Source: Bacteroidales bacterium
Lineage (GTDB): Bacteria; Bacteroidota; Bacteroidia; Bacteroidales; WCHB1-69
NCBI GenBank assembly: GCA_017650305.1
Contig: JAGCFD010000040.1
Span: 1 to 45,413, forward strand
Length of the DNA stretch: 45,413 nucleotides
Reading direction: 5' to 3'
Positions 253 through 36,469 of the stretch are shown piece by piece. The position numbers were made by a program, and so were the translations under genes. A model generated the notes under the pieces. It did no database searches and was not told the origin of the DNA. It saw only the letters and a list, made by a program, of their open reading frames with translations. Position 1 is the stretch's first letter, and the number at the start of each line of letters is the position of its first letter.

Positions 253-356
253 CTCCCAAAAATTTTTGTTGGCAAAGTGTAATAAAAATAGGTGTTCATT
301 CGTCTTATAGGATGTAAATATGAACCATTTCTTATTGACAACAGATTTAATCATTT

Positions 357-1775
357 ATGATGAAGAAGCTTTTACTCTCCCTTGTGATAGTTATGACCGC
401 TACGGTGTTTTACGCCCAGACGGTGTATTTGTATTTTTCGGGGCGGGATACCAGCAACCGCTATGTGCGTCTTGAACAAATCCAGGTGAAGAACCTCTCC
501 CAAGGCTGGCAGGAGACCCTCTATTGGCCTGATACCGTCCTGCAACTGCATACCACCCCCGGACCCAATGGCGTGGAAACCTGGCAGGCTGCCGAGCCTC
601 TCCACTGGTCTTGCAGTCCCAACCCGTGCCAAGGAAACGTCCTGACAACCCTACGTGTGCAGGAGGCCGGCGATGTGACAATTGATATCACGGATATGAC
701 GGGGCGTGTCGTAGAGTCTTCTCGTATGACATCCGTTCTTCCCGGATCCCACCAGTTGGACATGACGTTTGCTGCGGCAGGCATCTATTTTCTCATAGCA
801 AAGCAGAACGGCAAATCTGCATCTGTCAAGATTGTAAACCAGGGAAATGGGGGAAAGAATGGAATCAAATACCATGGCCTCTCTTCTCAAGAAGATCTTG
901 ACGGCTTGTCACCCAAGGGCAATTCCTACCAACCGTTCCATCAAGGGGACCAGATGGAATATATCGGTTATGCCACCATCAACGGATCTGACGTAATATC
1001 TTTGAGTCTGGTGCAGGAACAGAGTAGTACACAGTTTATCAAGCTTTATTTTGCTTTCCCGCAAGGGATTAATGACGGCCTTCCTTGTAAGCGACTCCCG
1101 TATGTGTATGACTACGACGGCAATGTTTACAACACGGTCCAGATCGGCAACCAATGCTGGACGAAAGAAAATCTCCGCTCTGTCAGATACACTGACGGAA
1201 CGATGATCCCTTTGGGAGTTGACGGCAGCAATACAGACGCTTACCGTTATTATCCCAACAATGACAGTGCCAATGTGGCGCTCTTTGGCTATTTCTACAA
1301 CTGGCCTGCCGTGATGCACGGCGCCAACGGGAGCGACAGCAATCCTTCGGGCGTGCAAGGTATTTGTCCAGAGGGCTGGCATGTGCCCAGTATAGCGGAA
1401 TGGCAACAACTGGACAACTATGTGCGAAGCCAGAGCCAATACTTCTGCAACAACAACTCTTACAATACTGCCAAAGCATGGGCTTCCACAAATTATTGGA
1501 ATTTCGCAAGTTGGTCTTGCGCCCCAGGCAACAACCCTTCCACCAATAATGCCACTGGTTTTTCGATATTACCAGCGGGTGTTTACAATTATTATACCAC
1601 TGCGTCATATTCACCACCTGGAAGTGAGTCAATGTTATGGAGCACCACTTTAGGATGCCAAGCCAATGGCCCCAGTGCCCAATCTGTAGTGGTGTTTAAT
1701 GGCAATTCAGCTCCCGGCATTGACATCGTCTCCGATCGCAAGAGCGGCTTCTCGGTCCGCTGCATCCTGGATTGA
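357..1775 (+). CDS. Secreted FISUMP-domain protein with internal T9SS-tail-like module
   Basis: Exported protein of 472 aa with a signal peptide (about residues 1-21, ending FYAQ). Residues about 85-160 resemble a type A T9SS sorting tail (SPNPCQGN, then DITDMTGRVV, then AGIYFLIAKQNGKSASVKIV). Residues about 254-472 form a FISUMP domain, with DYDGNVYNTVQIGNQCW, GICPEGWHVPS and a closing GFSVRC. The sorting-like module is internal, which is odd because sorting tails act at the C-terminus; here it may be an ordinary beta-sandwich. A close paralogue lies at 34881-36278. The molecular function of FISUMP proteins is unknown; a cell-surface or secreted location is inferred. The start could be either of two adjacent ATGs (357 or 360). 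Confidence 0.88.
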   Translation: MMKKLLLSLVIVMTATVFYAQTVYLYFSGRDTSNRYVRLEQIQVKNLSQGWQETLYWPDTVLQLHTTPGPNGVETWQAAEPLHWSCSPNPCQGNVLTTLRVQEAGDVTIDITDMTGRVVESSRMTSVLPGSHQLDMTFAAAGIYFLIAKQNGKSASVKIVNQGNGGKNGIKYHGLSSQEDLDGLSPKGNSYQPFHQGDQMEYIGYATINGSDVISLSLVQEQSSTQFIKLYFAFPQGINDGLPCKRLPYVYDYDGNVYNTVQIGNQCWTKENLRSVRYTDGTMIPLGVDGSNTDAYRYYPNNDSANVALFGYFYNWPAVMHGANGSDSNPSGVQGICPEGWHVPSIAEWQQLDNYVRSQSQYFCNNNSYNTAKAWASTNYWNFASWSCAPGNNPSTNNATGFSILPAGVYNYYTTASYSPPGSESMLWSTTLGCQANGPSAQSVVVFNGNSAPGIDIVSDRKSGFSVRCILD

Positions 1776-8264: not shown

Positions 8265-9232
8265 AAGATGCCGCCGCAGCCCTCCTGAAGACGCTCCCTC
8301 GTCTTCTGAACCAGCACTACCCTAATTTCGAACTGGTCATTGTGAACGACAACTCCAAGGACGACACACAACTGTTGTTGCTGGAGTATCAACAGCAATA
8401 TAGCAACATTCACGTTGTGAACCTGGATTCCGCCGTGACCAGCATCCGAGGAAACAAGTATGCCATGTCCATCGGTATCAGATGCGCAAAATATGAGAAT
8501 CTCGTCTTCACCGATGCTGAATGCGCGCCAAGTTCAGTCCATTGGCTGGAACATGTGGCAGGCCAGTTTACCGAGACCACCCATATCGTATTAGGTTACA
8601 GCACCTATCAGAAACGCAACAATCCTTTCAACAGGCTTTTGCATTTTGACACCATGGTCTCTGCTTTGCAATATTTCTCTTTGGCTCTTGCCCACTCCAC
8701 CTATCGTGGCGACCATAAGAACATCGGATTCTCCAAGACTCTTTTCTACAATCAGAAAGGTTTTGCATCCCACAACCATCTGGTTTACGGTGATGAGGAC
8801 ATCTTCATCAGCAAGGCATCCAATCAGAAAAACACTGCCGTGGTCTATTCACCTGATTCTTTCACGGTTCTCCAACGTACTGCATACTACAACTACTGGT
8901 GTCACCACAAAGAAGGGCTGTTCTATACTCGGAAGTACAATACATTCAAGAACAGATTTCTTCTCAATGCTTTTGGCATCATCAATCTCTTGTTCTACAT
9001 AGCACTGACATTTGCTATCATATTAAGCTGTAAAAACTTGGTACTGCTCGCCATCGTGCTTGGAGTTGCATTTTTGCGATTTGTCAGCATGTATTTGGTG
9101 TATGGCTTTTCAGCAAAACGCCTCAACGAGAAGCAGACTATCCCTGCCCTACTCCTCTACGACCTTATATTTGCGGTCATGAATCCTTTATATTACATTA
9201 GTGCACATTTTCATCAACAAAGATTCAAATAA
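8213..9232 (+). CDS. Membrane glycosyltransferase, family 2 (catalytic part, apparent frameshift)
   Basis: From the GTG at 8213 this frame gives 339 aa. It opens immediately before the GT2 core: PPVSVIMVVKD, FELVIVNDNSKDDT, VFTDAECAPSS (the DxD-like metal site reads DAE) and YGDEDIFISK, with QRTAYYNYW further on in the LxxRW-like position. Two or three transmembrane helices close the protein (about residues 250-330). The expected N-terminal anchor is encoded just upstream in another frame from 8097, so the intact gene was probably 8097-9232. The acceptor and sugar are unknown. The stop overlaps the next start (TAATG), suggesting coupling to the sigma factor gene. Confidence 0.82.
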   Translation: MPDIGPDAPPVSVIMVVKDAAAALLKTLPRLLNQHYPNFELVIVNDNSKDDTQLLLLEYQQQYSNIHVVNLDSAVTSIRGNKYAMSIGIRCAKYENLVFTDAECAPSSVHWLEHVAGQFTETTHIVLGYSTYQKRNNPFNRLLHFDTMVSALQYFSLALAHSTYRGDHKNIGFSKTLFYNQKGFASHNHLVYGDEDIFISKASNQKNTAVVYSPDSFTVLQRTAYYNYWCHHKEGLFYTRKYNTFKNRFLLNAFGIINLLFYIALTFAIILSCKNLVLLAIVLGVAFLRFVSMYLVYGFSAKRLNEKQTIPALLLYDLIFAVMNPLYYISAHFHQQRFK

Positions 9233-9843
9233 TGGGAAACTTACAATATTCCACTGAAAAGGCCAAACGGGATTACCTCCTTTTGCGCAAAGCGCTGGAC
9301 TTTAACGATCAGCGGGCATACGCAGAGCTGATGAGTCTGTATCGCGACAGCATCTACTATCTGATGATGAAAATCGTGAAAAACAGCGATGACGCCGAAG
9401 ATCTGACACAGGAGACCTTCGGCAAGGCTTTCCGCAACCTGCATGCCTATTCCCCTCAGTATGCCTTCTCCACATGGCTGTATCGCATCGCAGTCAACAA
9501 CAGCATCGACTATATCCGTCACAAGCACAATTCACCGCAGTGTATTGACGAAGATCTGTTCAGCAGCACTACGGAGCAGATTATAGACCGCACACAATCC
9601 AATCATTCCCAAACTCCTGAGGATGTGGTCATTGACAAACAACGTATCTCGCTGCTACGATCTGCTGTGCAACAATTGCCTGAGAAATATCGCAAGGTGG
9701 TAGAACTCCGCTATTACGACGAACTCTCCTACGAAGAAATATCCGAAAATCTTAATATTTCCCTCTCTAACGTTAAAATCCAGTTGCTCAGGGCGAAGAA
9801 TATGTTGTCTCAGATTGTAGGCAACATGCGCTATGCAATATAA
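9232..9843 (+). CDS. ECF-family RNA polymerase sigma factor
   Basis: Protein of 203 aa with sigma region 2 at about residues 25-95 (DAEDLTQETFGKAFRNL, then FSTWLYRIAVNNSIDYIR). Region 4 is near 135-195 (LPEKYRKVVELRYYDELSYEEISENLNISLSNVKIQLLRAK pattern, a helix-turn-helix). A polar linker of about 40 residues separates them. The ATG overlaps the stop of the glycosyltransferase by one base. No anti-sigma-like gene follows, so control may be at transcription or by a distant regulator. It is distinct from the second ECF factor at 26500. Confidence 0.93.
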   Translation: MGNLQYSTEKAKRDYLLLRKALDFNDQRAYAELMSLYRDSIYYLMMKIVKNSDDAEDLTQETFGKAFRNLHAYSPQYAFSTWLYRIAVNNSIDYIRHKHNSPQCIDEDLFSSTTEQIIDRTQSNHSQTPEDVVIDKQRISLLRSAVQQLPEKYRKVVELRYYDELSYEEISENLNISLSNVKIQLLRAKNMLSQIVGNMRYAI

Positions 9844-26410: not shown

Positions 26411-26499
26411 ACAGCCTACAATAAAGCTGCAAAGAAAAAATTTTTTTTAATTACTGCAACAAAAACTTTTGTCAATCGTCTTATAAAAGTGTTATCAGA

Positions 26500-27057
26500 A
26501 TGATGACAAGCGAAGAGAAGGATATCATAAACGGATGCAGACGGGGAGACCAGTCCTGTCAGGAGCAATTATACAAGACGTATGGTCCGATTATCAAGGC
26601 TGTATGTTACCGTTATGTCGGGTATCAGACTGAGGAGGCGAAGGATTTGTTTCACGACATTGTTGTAACAATTTTGACAAACATACATGCCTATAAAATG
26701 GACTCATCGCTGAAGTCTTGGATATATCGCATTTCGGTCAACAAGTGCATTGACTTTTTGCGAAGTCAGAACTTGCGAAAAACGGCGGCTGATGAGGAGA
26801 CGATGATGAACTATCCTTCTTCTGAAAGGCAGAATGACACTCTCACCATGGATCAGATCATAGAGATCATCAACACCCTGCCTGTCAATCAGAAGATGGC
26901 ATTCAATCTTTACGAAGTGGATGGATTCAACGAGAGGGAGATTGTGGAGATTATGGGGATGACACCCACCAACGTGCGCACATTGATATCACGCGCCAAG
27001 CAATCATTGAGAAAGAGAATACAAGCATATCTAGGAAAAGAAATAGAGATATTATGA
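26500..27057 (+). CDS. ECF-family RNA polymerase sigma factor, paired with a T9SS-domain anti-sigma-like protein
   Basis: Protein of 185 aa. Region 2 is at about residues 20-90 (YVGYQTEEAKDLFHDIVVTIL, LKSWIYRISVNKCIDFLRS). Region 4 is near 120-175 (LPVNQKMAFNLYEVDGFNEREIVEIMG, TPTNVRTLISRAK). The upstream 89 nt contain no TAnnTTTG element, so transcription may be autoregulated or use another signal. The stop overlaps the next ATG by 4 nt (ATGA), the usual arrangement for a sigma factor and its anti-sigma factor. The next gene's product has a suitable N-terminus, so control by sequestration at the membrane is inferred. Confidence 0.93.
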   Translation: MMTSEEKDIINGCRRGDQSCQEQLYKTYGPIIKAVCYRYVGYQTEEAKDLFHDIVVTILTNIHAYKMDSSLKSWIYRISVNKCIDFLRSQNLRKTAADEETMMNYPSSERQNDTLTMDQIIEIINTLPVNQKMAFNLYEVDGFNEREIVEIMGMTPTNVRTLISRAKQSLRKRIQAYLGKEIEIL

Positions 27058-27968
27058 AAGATATAAAGAGAGCCTTGTCGGAATACACCGTTCCGGTGGA
27101 AGAAGCGGAATGGCAGAAGATTTCATCTGATACGCGCCTTGTCAAGTACAACAGAGCCTGCAAGATCAGGCGTTGGGCCACTTGGGGAGGAGGCGCCACG
27201 GTGGGAATCATTGGCATAGTGGTCGGTTCTTTGCTGCTGACCCGTCCTGAGAAGACCGTTCCCGCTGCCGAGCCAACGCAGCCAGTTACCGTTGAAGAGA
27301 CCGCCCAGGCATCCCCTGCGCTCCGAGAGGCTTTGGCCCCCGATGCTTCTGCGACAGCTGACAACCCCGTGAATCCAGCTGAAACAAAGCCAGTTACCAA
27401 CACCTATGTGTATGGAGAGAGCACACCGAGTAGCAATGAGCCTATGGTTGCGCCCAGCACATCTTCGCTGAGTGTTGACAATCCCATCGCAAACAACAAA
27501 GTGACGGCCAACAACCAATTGGCCAGCACCACGACAACAGTCGCCACCCCGGCCGCACCAACAGTTTCTGAAAAAAAGACCATCAGAATAGAGGATGAGC
27601 CTTTGCGGATCTCCAAACCGGAAACTGAAACCGAATCAGAGATGATCACTCCCAAAAGTCAGTCAGAGCCCGCTGCAGAAGCTGAAAGTGCCTATCAGAT
27701 CTTTGTTCCCAACTCCTTCACTCCTGACGGCAACGGCACCAATGATCTCTTTATGCCGAAAGCCAGTTTCACAGTCAAAGATTACGAAATCAACATTTTC
27801 TCCCGCAATGGCGGCCGCGTGTTCACCTCTCGCAATATTGAGCAAGGCTGGGATGGATACAACCACGGCACACTGCTCCCCTCTGGCGCTTACCTGTACG
27901 TTATCCGCTATACCGACCCTGACGGCAACACCAAAACCCTTAAGGGACAAGTTGTCCTTCTCAAATAA
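27054..27968 (+). CDS. Single-pass membrane protein: anti-sigma-like N-terminus and T9SS type B (CHU_C) C-terminal domain
   Basis: Protein of 304 aa. Residues 1-40 are cytoplasmic and charged (IKRALSEYTVPVEEAEWQKI), recalling the short N-terminus of Bacteroidota anti-sigma-like proteins. Residues about 41-63 form one transmembrane helix preceded by KIRR, giving N-in/C-out topology; there is no cleavable signal peptide. Residues 65-210 are a Pro/Thr/Ser/Ala-rich periplasmic linker. Residues 214-304 are a complete type B T9SS sorting domain (FVPNSFTPDGNGTNDLF, INIFSRNGGRVF, GWDGYNHG, GAYLYVIRYTDPDGN). Such domains normally end secreted proteins; tethered behind a sigma factor, it may act as a sensor. 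The domain calls are firm; the regulatory role is inference. Confidence 0.85.
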   Translation: MKDIKRALSEYTVPVEEAEWQKISSDTRLVKYNRACKIRRWATWGGGATVGIIGIVVGSLLLTRPEKTVPAAEPTQPVTVEETAQASPALREALAPDASATADNPVNPAETKPVTNTYVYGESTPSSNEPMVAPSTSSLSVDNPIANNKVTANNQLASTTTTVATPAAPTVSEKKTIRIEDEPLRISKPETETESEMITPKSQSEPAAEAESAYQIFVPNSFTPDGNGTNDLFMPKASFTVKDYEINIFSRNGGRVFTSRNIEQGWDGYNHGTLLPSGAYLYVIRYTDPDGNTKTLKGQVVLLK

Positions 27969-27974
27969 ACACTC

Positions 27975-29273
27975 ATGATCGACAGAAGCATTGCTCCAGA
28001 CATACGGCCCTTACTCTCCGTTCCTTTAGCAGATCCAACACTTGAAATCTTGGAGAACGACATACCTCTTTATGTTTTCCCCAACAATGAATTGGAGCTC
28101 ATCCACATTCAGCTTGACATCCGTTCTGGTGCCATCTATGAGCCGAAAAAGCATCTTTCGCTTTTCACATACAGCCTTCTCAAAGGTAGTCATCCCAAAT
28201 ATCATGCTTCCGAGATAGCGGACTTGTTAGACTTTTACGGTTCCGCATACGACACCGATGTTTACCTTGACAGTGTCAGTCTCAAAATGGTGGTGCCCAA
28301 GCGGAATATTCCCAATATCCTGCCCATCATCTTCGAGATGATTTCCGCCCCAAAGTACCGGGAAGATTATTTCAACATCATCCGCCAGCAACGGATTCAA
28401 TCTTTGCGTAACAACCTGAAGAAAAACAGCTTCATAGCTTCCCGTCTCATGCTGCAAGCCATGTTGGGCAACCAATGTGCGGCAGGGCAACTTTCTACAG
28501 AAGAGAGTTATGAAGCGATCACAATCCCCGACCTGGAGCAATATCATCGGGAGAACTTCTGTGCTGAGAACATCACTTTATATTGCACTGGACTTTTAGA
28601 CAAAGAGACTCTTGACCAAATACGAAACATATTCGGCAAAATCAGCCATGGTCAACGGACACTTGAAATGCCCGTGTTTAAGATGCCGATGGACCCGTCG
28701 CCGATGCTCAACATGGAGGTGCCTGACAGTGTCCAGTCCTCCATCTGCCTGGCCATGCCCCATCTGGGCTATGCCGATGTCATATCCACTCCATTCAAAG
28801 TGTTGTCAACCATATCCGGAGGTTATTTTGGATCCCGGCTCATGCAACGAGTGCGCGAGAAATTGGGATACACATACGGTATCGGCAACAGTTTTGTCTT
28901 TCTCGGACGTCAATCCATCTTCGCTATCCAAAGTGATGTGGACGCATTGCACACCCAAGAGGCCATTGACGCCTGTTTCTCTGAATTGGAACGCTTGCAA
29001 AACGAGCCAGTGTCAGAAGATGAGCTGGAGACCGTCAAGACCTACATCACTGGCTCCCTCATTCAAGAAATCAGCACTTCAGTCGCTTATATGTCCAAAT
29101 ATGCCTTCTGGAAGAAAAACAGTACCGACCAGATAATGGTTCAGAAAATGCTGGAATTTATGCAACATATTCATCCTGAGGATATTATAAAAGAAGCAAA
29201 AAAATATTTCTCATACAATAATTTCACCCAAATCATCGTTGGTAAAGAATTAGATAATCGTCAAGATGTTTAG
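27975..29273 (+). CDS. M16 (insulinase)-fold protein lacking the zinc motif
   Basis: Protein of 432 aa, the size of a single-unit M16 subunit. Where active enzymes carry HxxEH, this one reads EPKKHLSLFTYSLLKGS, so the zinc ligands and catalytic Glu are missing. The C-terminal half keeps the M16 Arg/Tyr pair in GSRLMQRVREKLGYTYGI. No signal peptide is seen, so it is probably cytoplasmic unless secreted otherwise. M16 pseudo-subunits usually pair with an active subunit; none is encoded beside it. The gene lies 6 nt after the anti-sigma-like gene and overlaps the next gene by 8 nt, indicating one operon. Confidence 0.87.
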   Translation: MIDRSIAPDIRPLLSVPLADPTLEILENDIPLYVFPNNELELIHIQLDIRSGAIYEPKKHLSLFTYSLLKGSHPKYHASEIADLLDFYGSAYDTDVYLDSVSLKMVVPKRNIPNILPIIFEMISAPKYREDYFNIIRQQRIQSLRNNLKKNSFIASRLMLQAMLGNQCAAGQLSTEESYEAITIPDLEQYHRENFCAENITLYCTGLLDKETLDQIRNIFGKISHGQRTLEMPVFKMPMDPSPMLNMEVPDSVQSSICLAMPHLGYADVISTPFKVLSTISGGYFGSRLMQRVREKLGYTYGIGNSFVFLGRQSIFAIQSDVDALHTQEAIDACFSELERLQNEPVSEDELETVKTYITGSLIQEISTSVAYMSKYAFWKKNSTDQIMVQKMLEFMQHIHPEDIIKEAKKYFSYNNFTQIIVGKELDNRQDV

Positions 29274-31305
29274 GCATATCCTTTCTACATATTTGTTTCT
29301 ATTCTGCATAATAGGGTGTTACGCCTTAGACCCACCGGTTTTACAGTGTGTGGAATTGCAGAACAACAACACACGTGTAAAGATGTCTTGGGACAACTCA
29401 AGTGATTGCGCCTCTTTTGTATCCTACAACTTTTATGTGAATGGCAGCATGGTAGGCTCTGTCACGCCAGGCAACGAATATACCATGTGCAATTATGGCA
29501 GCACCGTGCTTAACAACATCACGCCGTCCAGCATTTACAGTTGTTACATTGAAGCAGTGACCGAAAGCGGCGCCACCTTCAATTCCAACATAGTGCAGAC
29601 CATCAGTCTGACGGTAACCCCCAATGCTGACAGTTCCTTAGTGATTCTCGAGTGGGAAGCGCCCTCATCTCAGATGTCCGGTTCCACTTGGGGTGACACC
29701 TATTTCCTGTACAAGATGCGTGATTTCGAAAATGACTTCAACCCTGTCCCGTTTGCCACAGTGCCGGCTTCGGCTGAGCGCCATTATGTAGACACCGCTG
29801 ACGTTTGCTACAACTTCTTGTACTATCAAGTGGGTATCACCAACAACTACAGTCCGAATCACAGCTGTGTTTTCAGAACGCCCATCGGTTCCGTGTATGT
29901 GGTGGACCGCTCCGCTCCCCCCACGCCCATCTTGGACAGCGTTTCTTATACGGAAGACAATCATGTGATGTTGGGCTTTCATTCCGACGAGCCCTATATG
30001 TACGGTTATATCGTCTATTATCTTAACAATGGTTGGGAGCCATTAGACACGGTCTACAACAGCACCTCCTGGATTGATCCATTTGGCGGTGAACGATGTT
30101 ACCGTATTGCCGTTTTGGACTCCTGTTCCAACAGTTCTCCCATGACTGAAAACGAGCAATGCGACATGCAATTGTATCAGGGAGCGATCGATGCCTGCAA
30201 CCATTCTGCCTCCTTCTCATGGAACACCTACACCAACATGACGGGTGGATTGAACCACTTCGAGGTATTCTTAAGTTCCGATCAAGGGGCTACTTGGGAA
30301 AGTGTTCTTACAACTAACAACACCAACAACACCATACAGAATCTGTCGCTCAACACTGAATATTGGGTTTTTGTGCGTGCCTTCAGCAACACCGAAGGCA
30401 TCACCGCCTCCACCAACCATCTCATCTTCAGTTTGGATGCCGACGAATCCGCAGACATGTCTTACATCCGCTCCGTTTCGGTTATTGACAATGAATATAT
30501 CCAGGTGAAAGTTTTCACCAGTGGAGACACGCTGGACTTCCACTCTATCACCCTGCAGCGCAGCAGTGATGGTATCAACTTCCAAGACTTAGAGACCCAG
30601 AACTTCAACGGAGCCTCTTACATCTTCCAAGACGAGAATGCCGACTTCAACCACAGCACTTACTACTACAGGACTTACATTATCAACAACTGTGATATTC
30701 CTGCCGGTTACTCCAACATTGCGCACAACATCTTGCTGACAGGCGAGGCCACCAACGCCCACGAGGATGTGCTTCAATGGAGCAATTACGGCGAATGGAA
30801 CGGAGATGTGGACTACTACGAACTTTATCGCAAGACAGAATCTGAGCTGACCTTCGCTCTGATACCCGAGCACATCTCCCCTTCCACTATCAACACCTAC
30901 TACGATGATGTCAACAACCTATACGAGTCCGGCTCCATCTTCAAGTACTATGTGGTGGCGCATGAGACGATGAACGACTATGGATTCCAAGACGAGTGCA
31001 TTTCCAACCAACTGGAAGTAAGACAATTGCCTTCTATCTATATCCCCAATGCTTTCACACCTTTGCAGACCATCAACAAGGTTTTCCAGCCTGTAAGCTC
31101 CTTCGTTTCTGCGGAAGGATACAGTTTCAACATCTGGAACCGGATGGGCACGCTCATCTTCTCCACCCATAATCCATACCAGGGATGGGACGGCTATTAC
31201 GATGGCAAAGTAGCTCCTATGGACGTGTATGTCTATAAGATTTACTACACCCTCCCCGATGGCACGGTGGAACAGCGCAAAGGCAGTGTGATGCTGATCT
31301 ATTAA
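29266..31305 (+). CDS. Secreted T9SS type B cargo with fibronectin-III-like repeats
   Basis: Protein of 679 aa with a signal peptide (about residues 1-20, ending GCYA). The long middle contains several beta-sandwich units with Fn3-like signatures (VKMSWDNSSD, VILEWEAPSS, SFSWNTYTN with NLSLNTEYWVFVRAF, LQWSNYGEW with YYELYRK). Residues about 590-679 form a type B sorting domain (IYIPNAFTPLQT, FNIWNRMGTLIFST, GWDGYYDGK, VYVYKIYYTLPDG). It should be exported by T9SS and attached or released at the surface, perhaps for adhesion. It is last in the sigma factor operon, overlapping the M16-like gene by 8 nt. Its stop overlaps the convergent beta-mannosidase stop by 4 nt. Confidence 0.88.
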   Translation: MFRHILSTYLFLFCIIGCYALDPPVLQCVELQNNNTRVKMSWDNSSDCASFVSYNFYVNGSMVGSVTPGNEYTMCNYGSTVLNNITPSSIYSCYIEAVTESGATFNSNIVQTISLTVTPNADSSLVILEWEAPSSQMSGSTWGDTYFLYKMRDFENDFNPVPFATVPASAERHYVDTADVCYNFLYYQVGITNNYSPNHSCVFRTPIGSVYVVDRSAPPTPILDSVSYTEDNHVMLGFHSDEPYMYGYIVYYLNNGWEPLDTVYNSTSWIDPFGGERCYRIAVLDSCSNSSPMTENEQCDMQLYQGAIDACNHSASFSWNTYTNMTGGLNHFEVFLSSDQGATWESVLTTNNTNNTIQNLSLNTEYWVFVRAFSNTEGITASTNHLIFSLDADESADMSYIRSVSVIDNEYIQVKVFTSGDTLDFHSITLQRSSDGINFQDLETQNFNGASYIFQDENADFNHSTYYYRTYIINNCDIPAGYSNIAHNILLTGEATNAHEDVLQWSNYGEWNGDVDYYELYRKTESELTFALIPEHISPSTINTYYDDVNNLYESGSIFKYYVVAHETMNDYGFQDECISNQLEVRQLPSIYIPNAFTPLQTINKVFQPVSSFVSAEGYSFNIWNRMGTLIFSTHNPYQGWDGYYDGKVAPMDVYVYKIYYTLPDGTVEQRKGSVMLIY

Positions 31306-34880: not shown

Positions 34881-36278
34881 TTAGTCGCGAACACATCGCA
34901 CGGAAAAAGCATAGTCCTTCCCAGAATCAATAGCCACAGACATATTGGAATTATTGTAATTCAGGTCCCGGGTCAGCACATGATTATTGCAGGTTTCCGT
35001 ACAACTCCAGAAGCCAGCTTTCTGTCCAAGTCCATAGTAGTACAGGGTGCTATATAAGCACTCGCCTGCCGGGAGTGCCGTAAAGCCTGTGACATTGTTA
35101 TGGGTGGGGTCATTACCGGGATAACAATTGTTAGTACCTGCACTTTGCCACAAGATGGGGGCTGCCAAGGACTTGGTCACACATCCGTACAGACCTCCCA
35201 CATAGCTTTTCAGCTGCTCCCATTCCGCATCACTCGGCAGATGCCAACCTACAGGGCAGATACCCCGCACGCCAGACGGATTCAAATCGCTGGTAAAGGG
35301 AGAGCCATAAATAATGGCAGGGAAGTTATAGACATAGCCATAGGTGGCTACATTACTGGTGTCGAAGTTGGGGGCATAACGATAGGGCGTTGACTGGTCA
35401 AGTTCCGTACCAATGGGAATGAGGGTGCCATCAGGATAGCTGGTGGTACGCAAATTCTCCTTCATCCAACACTGGTTACCAATCTGAACCGTATTGTACA
35501 CATTACCCTCATGATCCGTTACAGTCGGGAAACGCTTACAAGGATAGCCATCATTAAAACCTGGTTGAAAAGCGAAATAGAGTTTGATAGTCGTAAAACA
35601 CGACCATTGTTCCACCGTGGTCACCCTCACCATCTCCTCACCATTAATCATGGCAAAGGCCTCATATTCCATCGAATCTCCAGCATTAAACGGCCCGGGC
35701 GTATGTCCTTTAGGATTTGACACCTCATAGATATCCATCGTTGGCTTCTCTTCATTACCCCTGTATTGGATTTCATTCTTTCCTCCATTGCCCTGGTTCA
35801 CTAATTTCACAGAAGCTGTTCTACCATTCTGACGCGCCGTGAGAAAATACACGCCCGTTGAAGCTAGCGAGATGTTCCATTGATAAACACCCGGTTGCAG
35901 CAAGCCCTCATGTGAAGAAGCAACCATGCGCCCTGTGATATCGGTAATGTCCACCATCACATCGCCCTCGTCTCCCACTGCCAAGCTTGCCATTGAAGAA
36001 CCTTGGAATGGATTTGGATAATTGTTAGTCCATTGCAAAGAAGACGGCTGCCATGCATCCAAATCCTCTACGGAGGATGGATGGAAAGAAATGGTCAATG
36101 TGGTGTCCGGATATTGTAGAGTCTCCTGCCAGCCTCTTGTCAGATTTTTGACAATCAGATGATCAAGTTTCACGAATTTGTCAGTGGTATCACGACCAGT
36201 GAAACGTAAAATCGCCACCTGTGCAAACATGGCAGATGACATTAAGAGCAGTAAAAGAGAAAAGAGAATCTTCTTCAT
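34881..36278 (-). CDS. Secreted FISUMP-domain protein, paralogue of the 357-1775 gene
   Basis: Exported protein of 465 aa with a signal peptide (ending SAMFAQ). It is collinear with the protein at 357-1775: N-terminal VAILRFTGRDTTDKFVKLD, then an internal T9SS-tail-like module at about 85-165 (NNYPNPFQGSS, DITDITGRMV, STGVYFLTARQNGRTASVKLVNQGNGG in parts). The FISUMP domain at about 245-465 has DHEGNVYNTVQIGNQCW, GICPVGWHLPSDAEW, GFTALPAGE and a closing FSVRC. The two copies share order and many motifs but differ widely in sequence, so the duplication is old. Function unknown. The upstream 191 nt hold no clear promoter motif. Confidence 0.88.
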   Translation of the reverse strand: MKKILFSLLLLLMSSAMFAQVAILRFTGRDTTDKFVKLDHLIVKNLTRGWQETLQYPDTTLTISFHPSSVEDLDAWQPSSLQWTNNYPNPFQGSSMASLAVGDEGDVMVDITDITGRMVASSHEGLLQPGVYQWNISLASTGVYFLTARQNGRTASVKLVNQGNGGKNEIQYRGNEEKPTMDIYEVSNPKGHTPGPFNAGDSMEYEAFAMINGEEMVRVTTVEQWSCFTTIKLYFAFQPGFNDGYPCKRFPTVTDHEGNVYNTVQIGNQCWMKENLRTTSYPDGTLIPIGTELDQSTPYRYAPNFDTSNVATYGYVYNFPAIIYGSPFTSDLNPSGVRGICPVGWHLPSDAEWEQLKSYVGGLYGCVTKSLAAPILWQSAGTNNCYPGNDPTHNNVTGFTALPAGECLYSTLYYYGLGQKAGFWSCTETCNNHVLTRDLNYNNSNMSVAIDSGKDYAFSVRCVRD

Positions 36279-36469
36279 ATCAATATTTTAGGGTTTACAT
36301 TATGTCATCAGTTCCAGTAATGCCAGTTATAAAGGAGATGACAGATCGTTGAAATCTCAGATCACATTTTTTTAGACGAATAACGACTCAGATTATTGCA
36401 CTTTTTCTTCGATTTAATGAATATAAACCCTGATTCCTAACTATTTCACACTACATTCTCAGAGCACAT

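What the first reader, a model, noticed from the sequence alone, without database searches (positions are those of the whole stretch)
27054..27968. Anti-sigma-like membrane protein whose periplasmic end is a T9SS type B sorting domain
Seen: a 4-nt ATGA overlap with an ECF sigma gene, a short charged N-terminus (VPVEEAEW), one uncleaved transmembrane helix, a low-complexity linker and a complete CHU_C-type domain at residues 214-304. Known: CHU_C domains direct secreted proteins to T9SS after signal-peptide export. Inferred: here the domain is tethered to the inner membrane and may compete for, or bind, a T9SS component, so that secretion status controls release of the sigma factor. I do not recall this architecture being described functionally.
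Basis: partly seen in the sequence, partly recalled or inferred. Interest (0 to 1): 0.82.

Follow-up and report, generated by a model that had tools for sequence, protein, structure and literature searches.

The report
Anti-sigma factor with secretion-tag tail
A gene switch in some Bacteroidota appears to be held off by a membrane protein whose outer end is the same address tag that these cells use to send proteins out through the type IX secretion machine, and about half of the genes found under the same kind of promoter make proteins that end in such a tag.

Summary
Observation confirmed. Window 27054-27968 encodes a 304-aa protein: cytosolic head, one TM helix, ~155-residue disordered linker and a T9SS type B sorting domain, overlapping an ECF sigma gene by ATGA. 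The pair is conserved in the genus (32 of 32 orthologous loci examined) and was seen in 24 further genomes of the order. The head resembles (hhalign 99.0%, TM included) that of neighbours of related sigmas, 13 of 22 of which match an outer-membrane beta-barrel family: the layout of published Dma anti-sigmas. So this is a Dma-like chassis with a T9SS tag for a tail. New here: an ECF-type promoter precedes sigma in 31 of 33 genus loci; two exact forms give 48 sites in 40 genomes (reversed control 0): 11 sigma operons, 36 exported products, one kinase. Of the 37 non-sigma products 18 end in a T9SS sorting domain; 7 more hold one internally. For one form, sigma and cargo sites lie in different genomes. 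Best reading: a trans-envelope anti-sigma that ties cargo transcription to the T9SS, analogous to FlgM. Head-sigma binding, promoter use, docking and the sign of the signal are inferred. New variant of a known kind.

The parts
26455..26483 (+). ECF-type promoter TGCAACA-N14-TCGTCTTA, 16 nt before the sigma ATG
   Evidence: exact match; equivalent element before sigma in 31 of 33 genus loci, reversed control 0, shuffle mean 0.045
26500..27057 (+). ECF sigma factor, 185 aa
   Evidence: Pfam Sigma70_r2 and Sigma70_r4_2 over cut-off
27054..27968 (+). anti-sigma-like single-TM protein with T9SS type B tail, 304 aa (the finding)
27054..27185 (+). cytosolic head (residues 1-44), motif PVxExEWxxIxxD
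   Evidence: P14 and W20 invariant, E17 I23 D26 R40 at least 90% in 31 orthologues; of these only W20 is invariant in the wider set of 17; hhalign to other-tailed N-termini 99.0%
27186..27242 (+). predicted transmembrane helix (residues 45-63)
   Evidence: hydropathy and charge
27243..27701 (+). low-complexity P/T/A/S/E-rich linker (residues 64-216)
   Evidence: composition and length conservation
27702..27965 (+). CHU_C / T9SS type B sorting domain (residues 217-304)
   Evidence: PF13585 59.1 bits, TIGR04131 51.4 bits
27975..29273 (+). M16-family protein without HxxEH motif, third gene of the cluster
   Evidence: PF05193 95.4 bits; HxxEH absent in the window protein and in 47 of 47 orthologue ORFs, locus duplicates included
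29266..31305 (+). fn3 plus CHU_C (type B) cargo protein, 679 aa, fourth gene of the cluster; N-terminus looks like a signal peptide by eye
   Evidence: PF00041 and PF13585 over cut-off; TIGR04131 33.3 bits, just under its cut-off 35; full-length orthologue in the same place in 18 of 19 wide genus loci
278..307 (+). same promoter class (TGTAATA-N15-TCGTCTTA) before the gene at 357
   Evidence: exact match to the Y form
357..1775 (+). predicted regulon member: exported FISUMP protein with an internal type A sorting domain (residues 88-160)
   Evidence: PF09603 and PF18962 over cut-off
36372..36400 (-). same promoter class, one mismatch, 93 nt before the gene whose 5' end is at 36278
   Evidence: exact before the orthologous genes of G010 and G004
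34881..36278 (-). predicted regulon member: FISUMP paralogue with an internal type A sorting domain

Best explanation
The protein is the anti-sigma factor of the ECF sigma encoded just upstream. Its N-terminal ~44 residues hold the sigma at the cytosolic face of the inner membrane; the uncleaved TM helix and the ~155-residue disordered linker let the C-terminal CHU_C domain reach the outer membrane, where the T9SS handles it as a type B substrate that cannot leave because its other end is anchored. Engagement of that tail by an available T9SS (pull, or cleavage of the linker and then of the TM segment) releases the sigma, which transcribes its own operon and a set of T9SS cargo and other surface-protein genes. 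Cargo transcription is thus matched to secretion capacity, as FlgM export does for late flagellar genes. Shown here: anatomy, conservation, similarity of the head to that of beta-barrel-tailed neighbours, the promoter, and the exported, T9SS-rich products of genes under the same promoter class. Inferred: head-sigma binding, use of these promoters by this sigma, T9SS engagement, and the sign of the response.
For: Conserved pairing in 32 of 32 orthologous genus loci and the paralogous L050 and in 24 further order genomes. N-terminus similar to that of other-tailed neighbours of related sigmas, 13 of 22 of which match OMP_b-brl_2 at E<=0.001. Promoter before sigma in 31 of 33 loci. 48 exact promoter sites in 40 genomes, reversed control 0: 11 sigma operons, with no other ECF gene, 36 genes of exported-looking products and 1 kinase. 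17 of the 37 non-sigma products end in a type B and 1 in a type A sorting domain, and 7 hold an internal type A domain, against 17 places in the whole 2.09-Mb own genome that match the window protein. In six genomes (G000, G816, G024, G010, G004, G150) the sigma operon and exported-product genes share one exact form. The operon itself ends in a CHU_C cargo gene. SprA is present in 27 of 28 genomes with the pair and three PorP/SprF-family genes in the own genome.
Against: No direct evidence that the tail meets the T9SS or that the head binds sigma. For the second exact form (TCGTTATA) the 4 sigma-operon sites (G017, G018, G028, G035) and the 12 exported-gene sites lie in different genomes, so that form does not tie cargo to this sigma inside one genome; 32 of 40 genomes have no site of the first form. 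Both forms were chosen after looking at earlier hits, and many sites are orthologues of each other. Looser patterns did not exceed their reversed controls: 87 against 85, 75 against 70, 56 against 50. 7 of the 8 type A domains are internal, where a T9SS tag is not known to work. A paralogous pair in the own genome (G000:C12) has a nearly identical promoter, so part of the list may belong to the other sigma. Outside the genus the equivalent search gave 10 sites against 6 in the control. SprA is almost as common in genomes chosen for another tail (21 of 24). No T9SS machinery gene was recognised among the 48 sites. By analogy with the P. vulgatus anti-sigma, whose regulon follows envelope stress (PMC9308784), the sign could be the reverse.
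Confidence: 0.46

Rival explanations
1. Surface sensor: the T9SS only delivers the tail to or across the outer membrane, the anti-sigma ends up spanning the envelope, and what is sensed is an outside ligand or outer-membrane damage, as for Dma-type proteins. The T9SS is a delivery route, not the signal.
For: Same chassis as Dma (here; layout from PMC13088901, passages); barrel and T9SS tails occupy the same place in related pairs; products under the promoter are surface or exported proteins of several kinds.
Against: In the genus the tail holds nothing recognised but the sorting domain and a low-complexity linker; the list under the promoter is rich in the same sorting domain, which fits secretion coupling better.
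Confidence: 0.29
2. Periplasmic form: CHU_C serves only as an Ig-like binding domain in the periplasm and never meets the T9SS; the anti-sigma is released by ordinary periplasmic proteolysis.
For: CHU_C is an Ig-like fold (recalled); no T9SS contact is shown.
Against: The tail scores over the type B cut-off and keeps its conserved positions; 17 of 37 non-sigma products under the promoter carry the same domain; linker length is kept at 137-179 residues although its sequence is not.
Confidence: 0.14
3. Ordinary T9SS cargo with an unusually long N-terminus that is cut off at the inner membrane; the sigma neighbour is incidental.
For: A V-x-A stretch follows the TM helix at residues 69-71 (read).
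Against: Sigma pairing in 32 of 32 orthologous loci, invariant P14 and W20 in the part that would be thrown away, 39-47 residues before the hydrophobic segment in 31 orthologues; the cargo protein of the same operon starts with an ordinary-looking short signal peptide (by eye).
Confidence: 0.06

Closest known systems
[quoted passage not shown] thetaiotaomicron; PMC13088901, abstract and passages seen; the founding PNAS 2024 paper is not held)
   Same: N-terminal sigma-binding segment, one TM helix, long disordered tether, C-terminal module tied to the outer membrane; ECF sigma gene next door; N-terminal similarity measured here to other-tailed, partly barrel-tailed relatives of the same order
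   Different: C-terminal module is a T9SS type B sorting domain, not a beta-barrel; genes under the promoter are of exported proteins, about half with T9SS tags, not the OMV or PUL effects reported for Dma
Anti-sigma M0N98_03760 of Phocaeicola vulgatus (PMC9308784, passages seen)
   Same: large anti-sigma predicted to span the periplasm, downstream of its ECF sigma; its loss leaves the sigma active
   Different: beta-barrel tail; responds to toxin exposure, probably envelope stress
PorXY-SigP and PorA of Porphyromonas gingivalis (PMC7712824, start of abstract and passages seen)
   Same: an ECF sigma tied to the T9SS; PorA, a cargo protein with a T9SS sorting domain, affects the signalling
   Different: SigP is bound by response regulator PorX and controls T9SS component genes; the paper says of candidate anti-sigmas next to other ECF sigmas that it has not been shown whether they are anti-sigmas
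FlgM of flagella (recalled)
   Same: works like it in the proposed model: an anti-sigma recognised by the secretion machine whose late substrates its sigma transcribes
   Different: FlgM is soluble and leaves through a type III system; no homology claimed
RsgI anti-sigmas of Clostridium (recalled)
   Same: membrane-anchored anti-sigma with an outside-reaching tail
   Different: Gram-positive, carbohydrate-binding tail

Membership tests
Dma family | N-terminal anti-sigma segment homologous to Dma heads | tested here: met
   profile-profile 99.0%, E 2.3e-18 over the first 85 residues (head plus TM) of 42 CHU_C-tailed and 22 other-tailed proteins; the 22 stand in for Dma, B. thetaiotaomicron Dma1/2 themselves were not fetched, and the TM part adds to the score
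Dma family | single TM helix and long disordered tether | tested here: met
   hydropathy, linker 137-179 residues in 31 orthologues; disorder judged from composition only
Dma family | C-terminal outer-membrane beta-barrel | tested here: not met
   only CHU_C / TIGR04131 found over cut-off; 13 of 22 other-tailed neighbours match OMP_b-brl_2 at E<=0.001
Dma family | cognate ECF21 sigma gene adjacent | tested here: inconclusive
   adjacent ECF sigma met; ECF21 group assignment was not possible with the libraries used
Dma family | binds and inhibits its sigma | not testable with these tools
   structure prediction switched off
T9SS type B cargo | C-terminal CHU_C / TIGR04131 domain over cut-off | tested here: met
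T9SS type B cargo | cleavable N-terminal Sec signal peptide | tested here: inconclusive
   39-47 residues precede the hydrophobic segment and hold invariant residues, unlike a signal peptide; cleavage could not be predicted or measured
T9SS type B cargo | secretion depends on the T9SS | not testable with these tools
   SprA and PorP/SprF-family genes are present in the genome
FlgM-like secretion checkpoint (analogy only) | sigma transcribes substrates of the machine that handles the anti-sigma | tested here: inconclusive
   18 of 37 non-sigma products under the promoter end in a T9SS sorting domain, but use of these promoters by this sigma is inferred and one promoter form is not shared within a genome

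The most novel reading that the evidence does not exclude
[quoted passage not shown] Barrel and T9SS tails would then be exchangeable outer-membrane probes on one anti-sigma chassis.
Probability: 0.35. Interest if true: 0.87.

Novelty: new variant of a known kind. Interest (0 to 1): 0.72.

Why it matters
How Bacteroidota match T9SS cargo production to secretion capacity is open as far as I know; PorXY-SigP concerns T9SS component genes in P. gingivalis, and its upstream route is described as unknown in PMC7712824. This pair gives a physical candidate link (the cargo tag itself on an anti-sigma), with a defined promoter and gene list that make the coupling testable. It also suggests that the Dma family is part of a wider class of trans-envelope anti-sigmas with exchangeable outer-membrane modules.

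Tried and rejected
Ordinary cargo with an incidental sigma neighbour: rejected by pairing in 32 of 32 orthologous loci and the conserved head. Unique to one genome: rejected. Confined to the genus: rejected, 24 other genomes of the order in 11 families, the window's own family included; a minimum, since the listing is capped. Among the 29 loci kept from a 394-genome phylum sample (L190-L218) no sigma pair was seen; the other matches there were not examined. T9SS co-occurrence as proof: uninformative (27 of 28 against 21 of 24). Single or multiple origin of the T9SS tail: not decided; the 64-row sigma tree needs 4 changes of the tail label, and 1 is not ruled out by well-supported branches. Cargo link outside the genus: inconclusive, 10 sites against 6 control, 4 of the 10 before sigma genes. 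Looser promoter patterns: no excess over the reversed control, 87 against 85 in 5 genomes, 75 against 70 and 56 against 50 in 9 genomes; hence the exact longer forms, which were chosen after seeing those hits. Co-variation of the promoter form between sigma and cargo: not supported for the TCGTTATA form. The scan used one CHU_C peptide pattern and mostly returned ordinary cargo. M16 gene as a protease of the pathway: no HxxEH motif. A solved structure of the tail: one plausible match, the C-terminus of grappling hook protein A (9flp_A, E 1.6e-06).

Rows dropped: L015, a near copy, was left out of alignments A1 and A2; L050 was left out of A1/A2 but kept in A3; L027, L067 and L405 gave no pair in the tree script and are not in the 64-row tree; duplicate loci of one site were counted once in the 48 sites; L358 equals window 278.

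Full report
What is there. The 304-aa ORF at 27054-27968 overlaps the end of an ECF sigma gene, 26500-27057, by four bases. It has a 44-residue N-terminus, a hydrophobic 19-mer at residues 45-63 with net charge +5 before and 0 after, a 155-residue linker rich in P, T, A, S and E, and a CHU_C / T9SS type B sorting domain well over both curated cut-offs. Two more genes follow closely on the same strand: an M16-family protein that lacks HxxEH and a 679-aa fn3 protein that itself ends in CHU_C (Pfam over cut-off; TIGR04131 just under its cut-off).

Conservation. Of the other four, G007, G009 and G030 are 51-63% complete and G016 shows only the CHU_C part with a stop. The sigma gene is directly upstream in the 32 orthologous loci looked at (L001-L030, L045, L049) and in the paralogous one, L050 (distances of -161 to +51 nt by longest ORF, where start codons are ambiguous). 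The M16 gene follows in 28 of 30 short loci (the two misses end at a contig edge) and in 19 of 19 wide genus loci; the fn3-CHU_C gene follows in 18 of 19 of the latter, the miss being L045, which runs to the contig start. In 31 orthologues the linker sequence drifts while its length stays 137-179 residues; P14 and W20 of the head are invariant and E17, I23, D26 and R40 nearly so. In the wider set of 17 only W20 of these stays invariant.

Beyond the genus. With the sigma alignment as query (294 order genomes), 29 of the 30 loci kept show an ORF right behind the sigma (none for L077), by eye with a hydrophobic segment and mostly the motif F..L..[FY]...P..xW..I. Six of these are CHU_C-tailed (four in the genus, L059, L076). 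The rest are mostly longer: of 22 analysed, 13 match the outer-membrane barrel family OMP_b-brl_2 at E<=0.001. CHU_C-tailed pairs were seen in 24 further genomes of 11 families of the order and in two named MAGs, L082 and L115. Profile comparison of the first 85 residues (head plus TM, so hydrophobic sequence adds to the score) of 42 CHU_C-tailed and 22 other-tailed proteins gives 99.0% probability and E 2.3e-18. In the sigma tree the tail label needs four changes, though one origin is not excluded. The own genome holds a second pair at G000:C12.

Known chassis. The Dma family of B. [quoted passage not shown] P. vulgatus has such a protein whose loss leaves its sigma active and whose regulon answers toxin exposure, likely through envelope stress (PMC9308784, passages). 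The protein here meets the first three features by sequence and not the fourth, so I call it Dma-like, not Dma. Six searches for a T9SS-tailed anti-sigma in print showed none (open-licence PubMed Central only). Of the papers they listed I looked inside PMC7712824 and PMC12045153 (passages); the others I saw as listing only.

Promoter and gene list. A TGYAAY-N15-17-CGTY element ends about 20 nt (7-51) before the sigma domain start in 31 of 33 genus loci (L001-L030, L045, L049, L054); the reversed pattern is found in none and single-base shuffles average 0.045 loci. The pattern was written after reading these sequences, and the loci are related. The two misses carry TGTAAG in the same place. The other ECF sigma of the window (9232) shows no such element by eye. 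Exact searches of 40 genus genomes gave 32 sites for TGYAAYA-N14/15-TCGTCTTA (8 genomes) and 16 for TGCAACA-N14/15-TCGTTATA (15 genomes), with 0 in the reversed control each time. Of these 48 sites, 11 precede this sigma operon (7 and 4; no other ECF gene), 36 precede a gene whose product starts with a signal-peptide- or lipoprotein-like segment (24 and 12), and one a uridine kinase.

Among the 37 non-sigma products, at E<=0.001, 17 carry the type B domain and 8 the type A domain. The 8 are one C-terminal match under Pfam's cut-off (L362) and seven FISUMP proteins whose type A domain is internal, residues ~87-160. So 18 end in a sorting domain. Six more are FISUMP lipoproteins without one. Two of the 37 are cut off by the end of the stretch (L349, L389); L349 looks like the 5' part of a protein that ends in CHU_C in other genomes. 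For scale, the own genome has 17 places that match the window protein at all. Many of the 37 are orthologues of each other; they make roughly 16 families by my grouping by eye. Two products are little more than a signal peptide and a CHU_C domain (140 and 145 aa). The exported call rests on N-terminal hydropathy and lipobox, not on a trained predictor.

Limits of that link. In six genomes (G000, G816, G024, G010, G004, G150) sigma operon and exported-product genes share the first form. For the second form they do not: the four sigma sites are in G017, G018, G028 and G035 and the twelve others in eleven different genomes. 32 of 40 genomes have no site of the first form. Looser patterns do not exceed their reversed controls (87/85, 75/70, 56/50). 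That this sigma uses these promoters follows from the usual self-regulation of ECF sigmas and was not measured; the paralogous pair has a promoter one base off. Outside the genus, CAAC-N15-18-YGTC precedes 15 of 29 other CHU_C-type pairs, paralogues included (control 1), but a stricter genome search gave 10 sites against 6 in the control.

Mechanism. The T9SS is present: SprA over cut-off in the own genome and in 27 of 28 genomes with the pair, and three PorP/SprF-family genes in the own genome. About 155 unstructured residues could cross a periplasm (inference). Since the predicted targets are exported proteins and no machinery gene was recognised, a positive coupling, in which engagement of the tail by a working T9SS frees the sigma, makes more sense than a repair response; but the precedent of envelope stress activating a Dma-type sigma points the other way. 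Structure prediction was off, so head-sigma binding rests on pairing and N-terminal similarity alone.

Noticed in passing
window 357-1775 (+) and 34881-36278 (-): FISUMP proteins with a type A sorting domain in the middle of the chain (residues ~87-160), not at the C-terminus, each under the same promoter class (the second with one mismatch); an internal T9SS domain is odd.
   Followed up: partly
window 27975-29273: M16-family protein without HxxEH and without an evident signal peptide, between the anti-sigma and the fn3-CHU_C gene; motif absent in 47 of 47 orthologue ORFs, duplicates of loci included.
   Followed up: partly
L365 5121-6580 (G000:C12): Second sigma plus TM-CHU_C pair in the own genome, with no M16 or fn3-CHU_C gene next to it; promoter one base off the exact pattern.
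   Followed up: partly
L396 439-873 and L395 651-1070: Tiny proteins of 145 and 140 aa, signal-peptide-like start plus CHU_C only, under the TGCAACA..TCGTTATA promoter.
   Followed up: partly
L165, L115 and other CHU_C-tailed pairs outside the genus: Proteins of ~350-377 aa with an extra stretch before CHU_C that looks Ig-like by eye in L076/L165 and L115; Pfam names nothing there in L165 and L167.
   Followed up: partly
window 9232-9843: Second ECF sigma gene of the window, followed by an acyl-CoA-synthetase-like ORF rather than an anti-sigma-like one (by eye), and no such promoter by eye.
   Followed up: no
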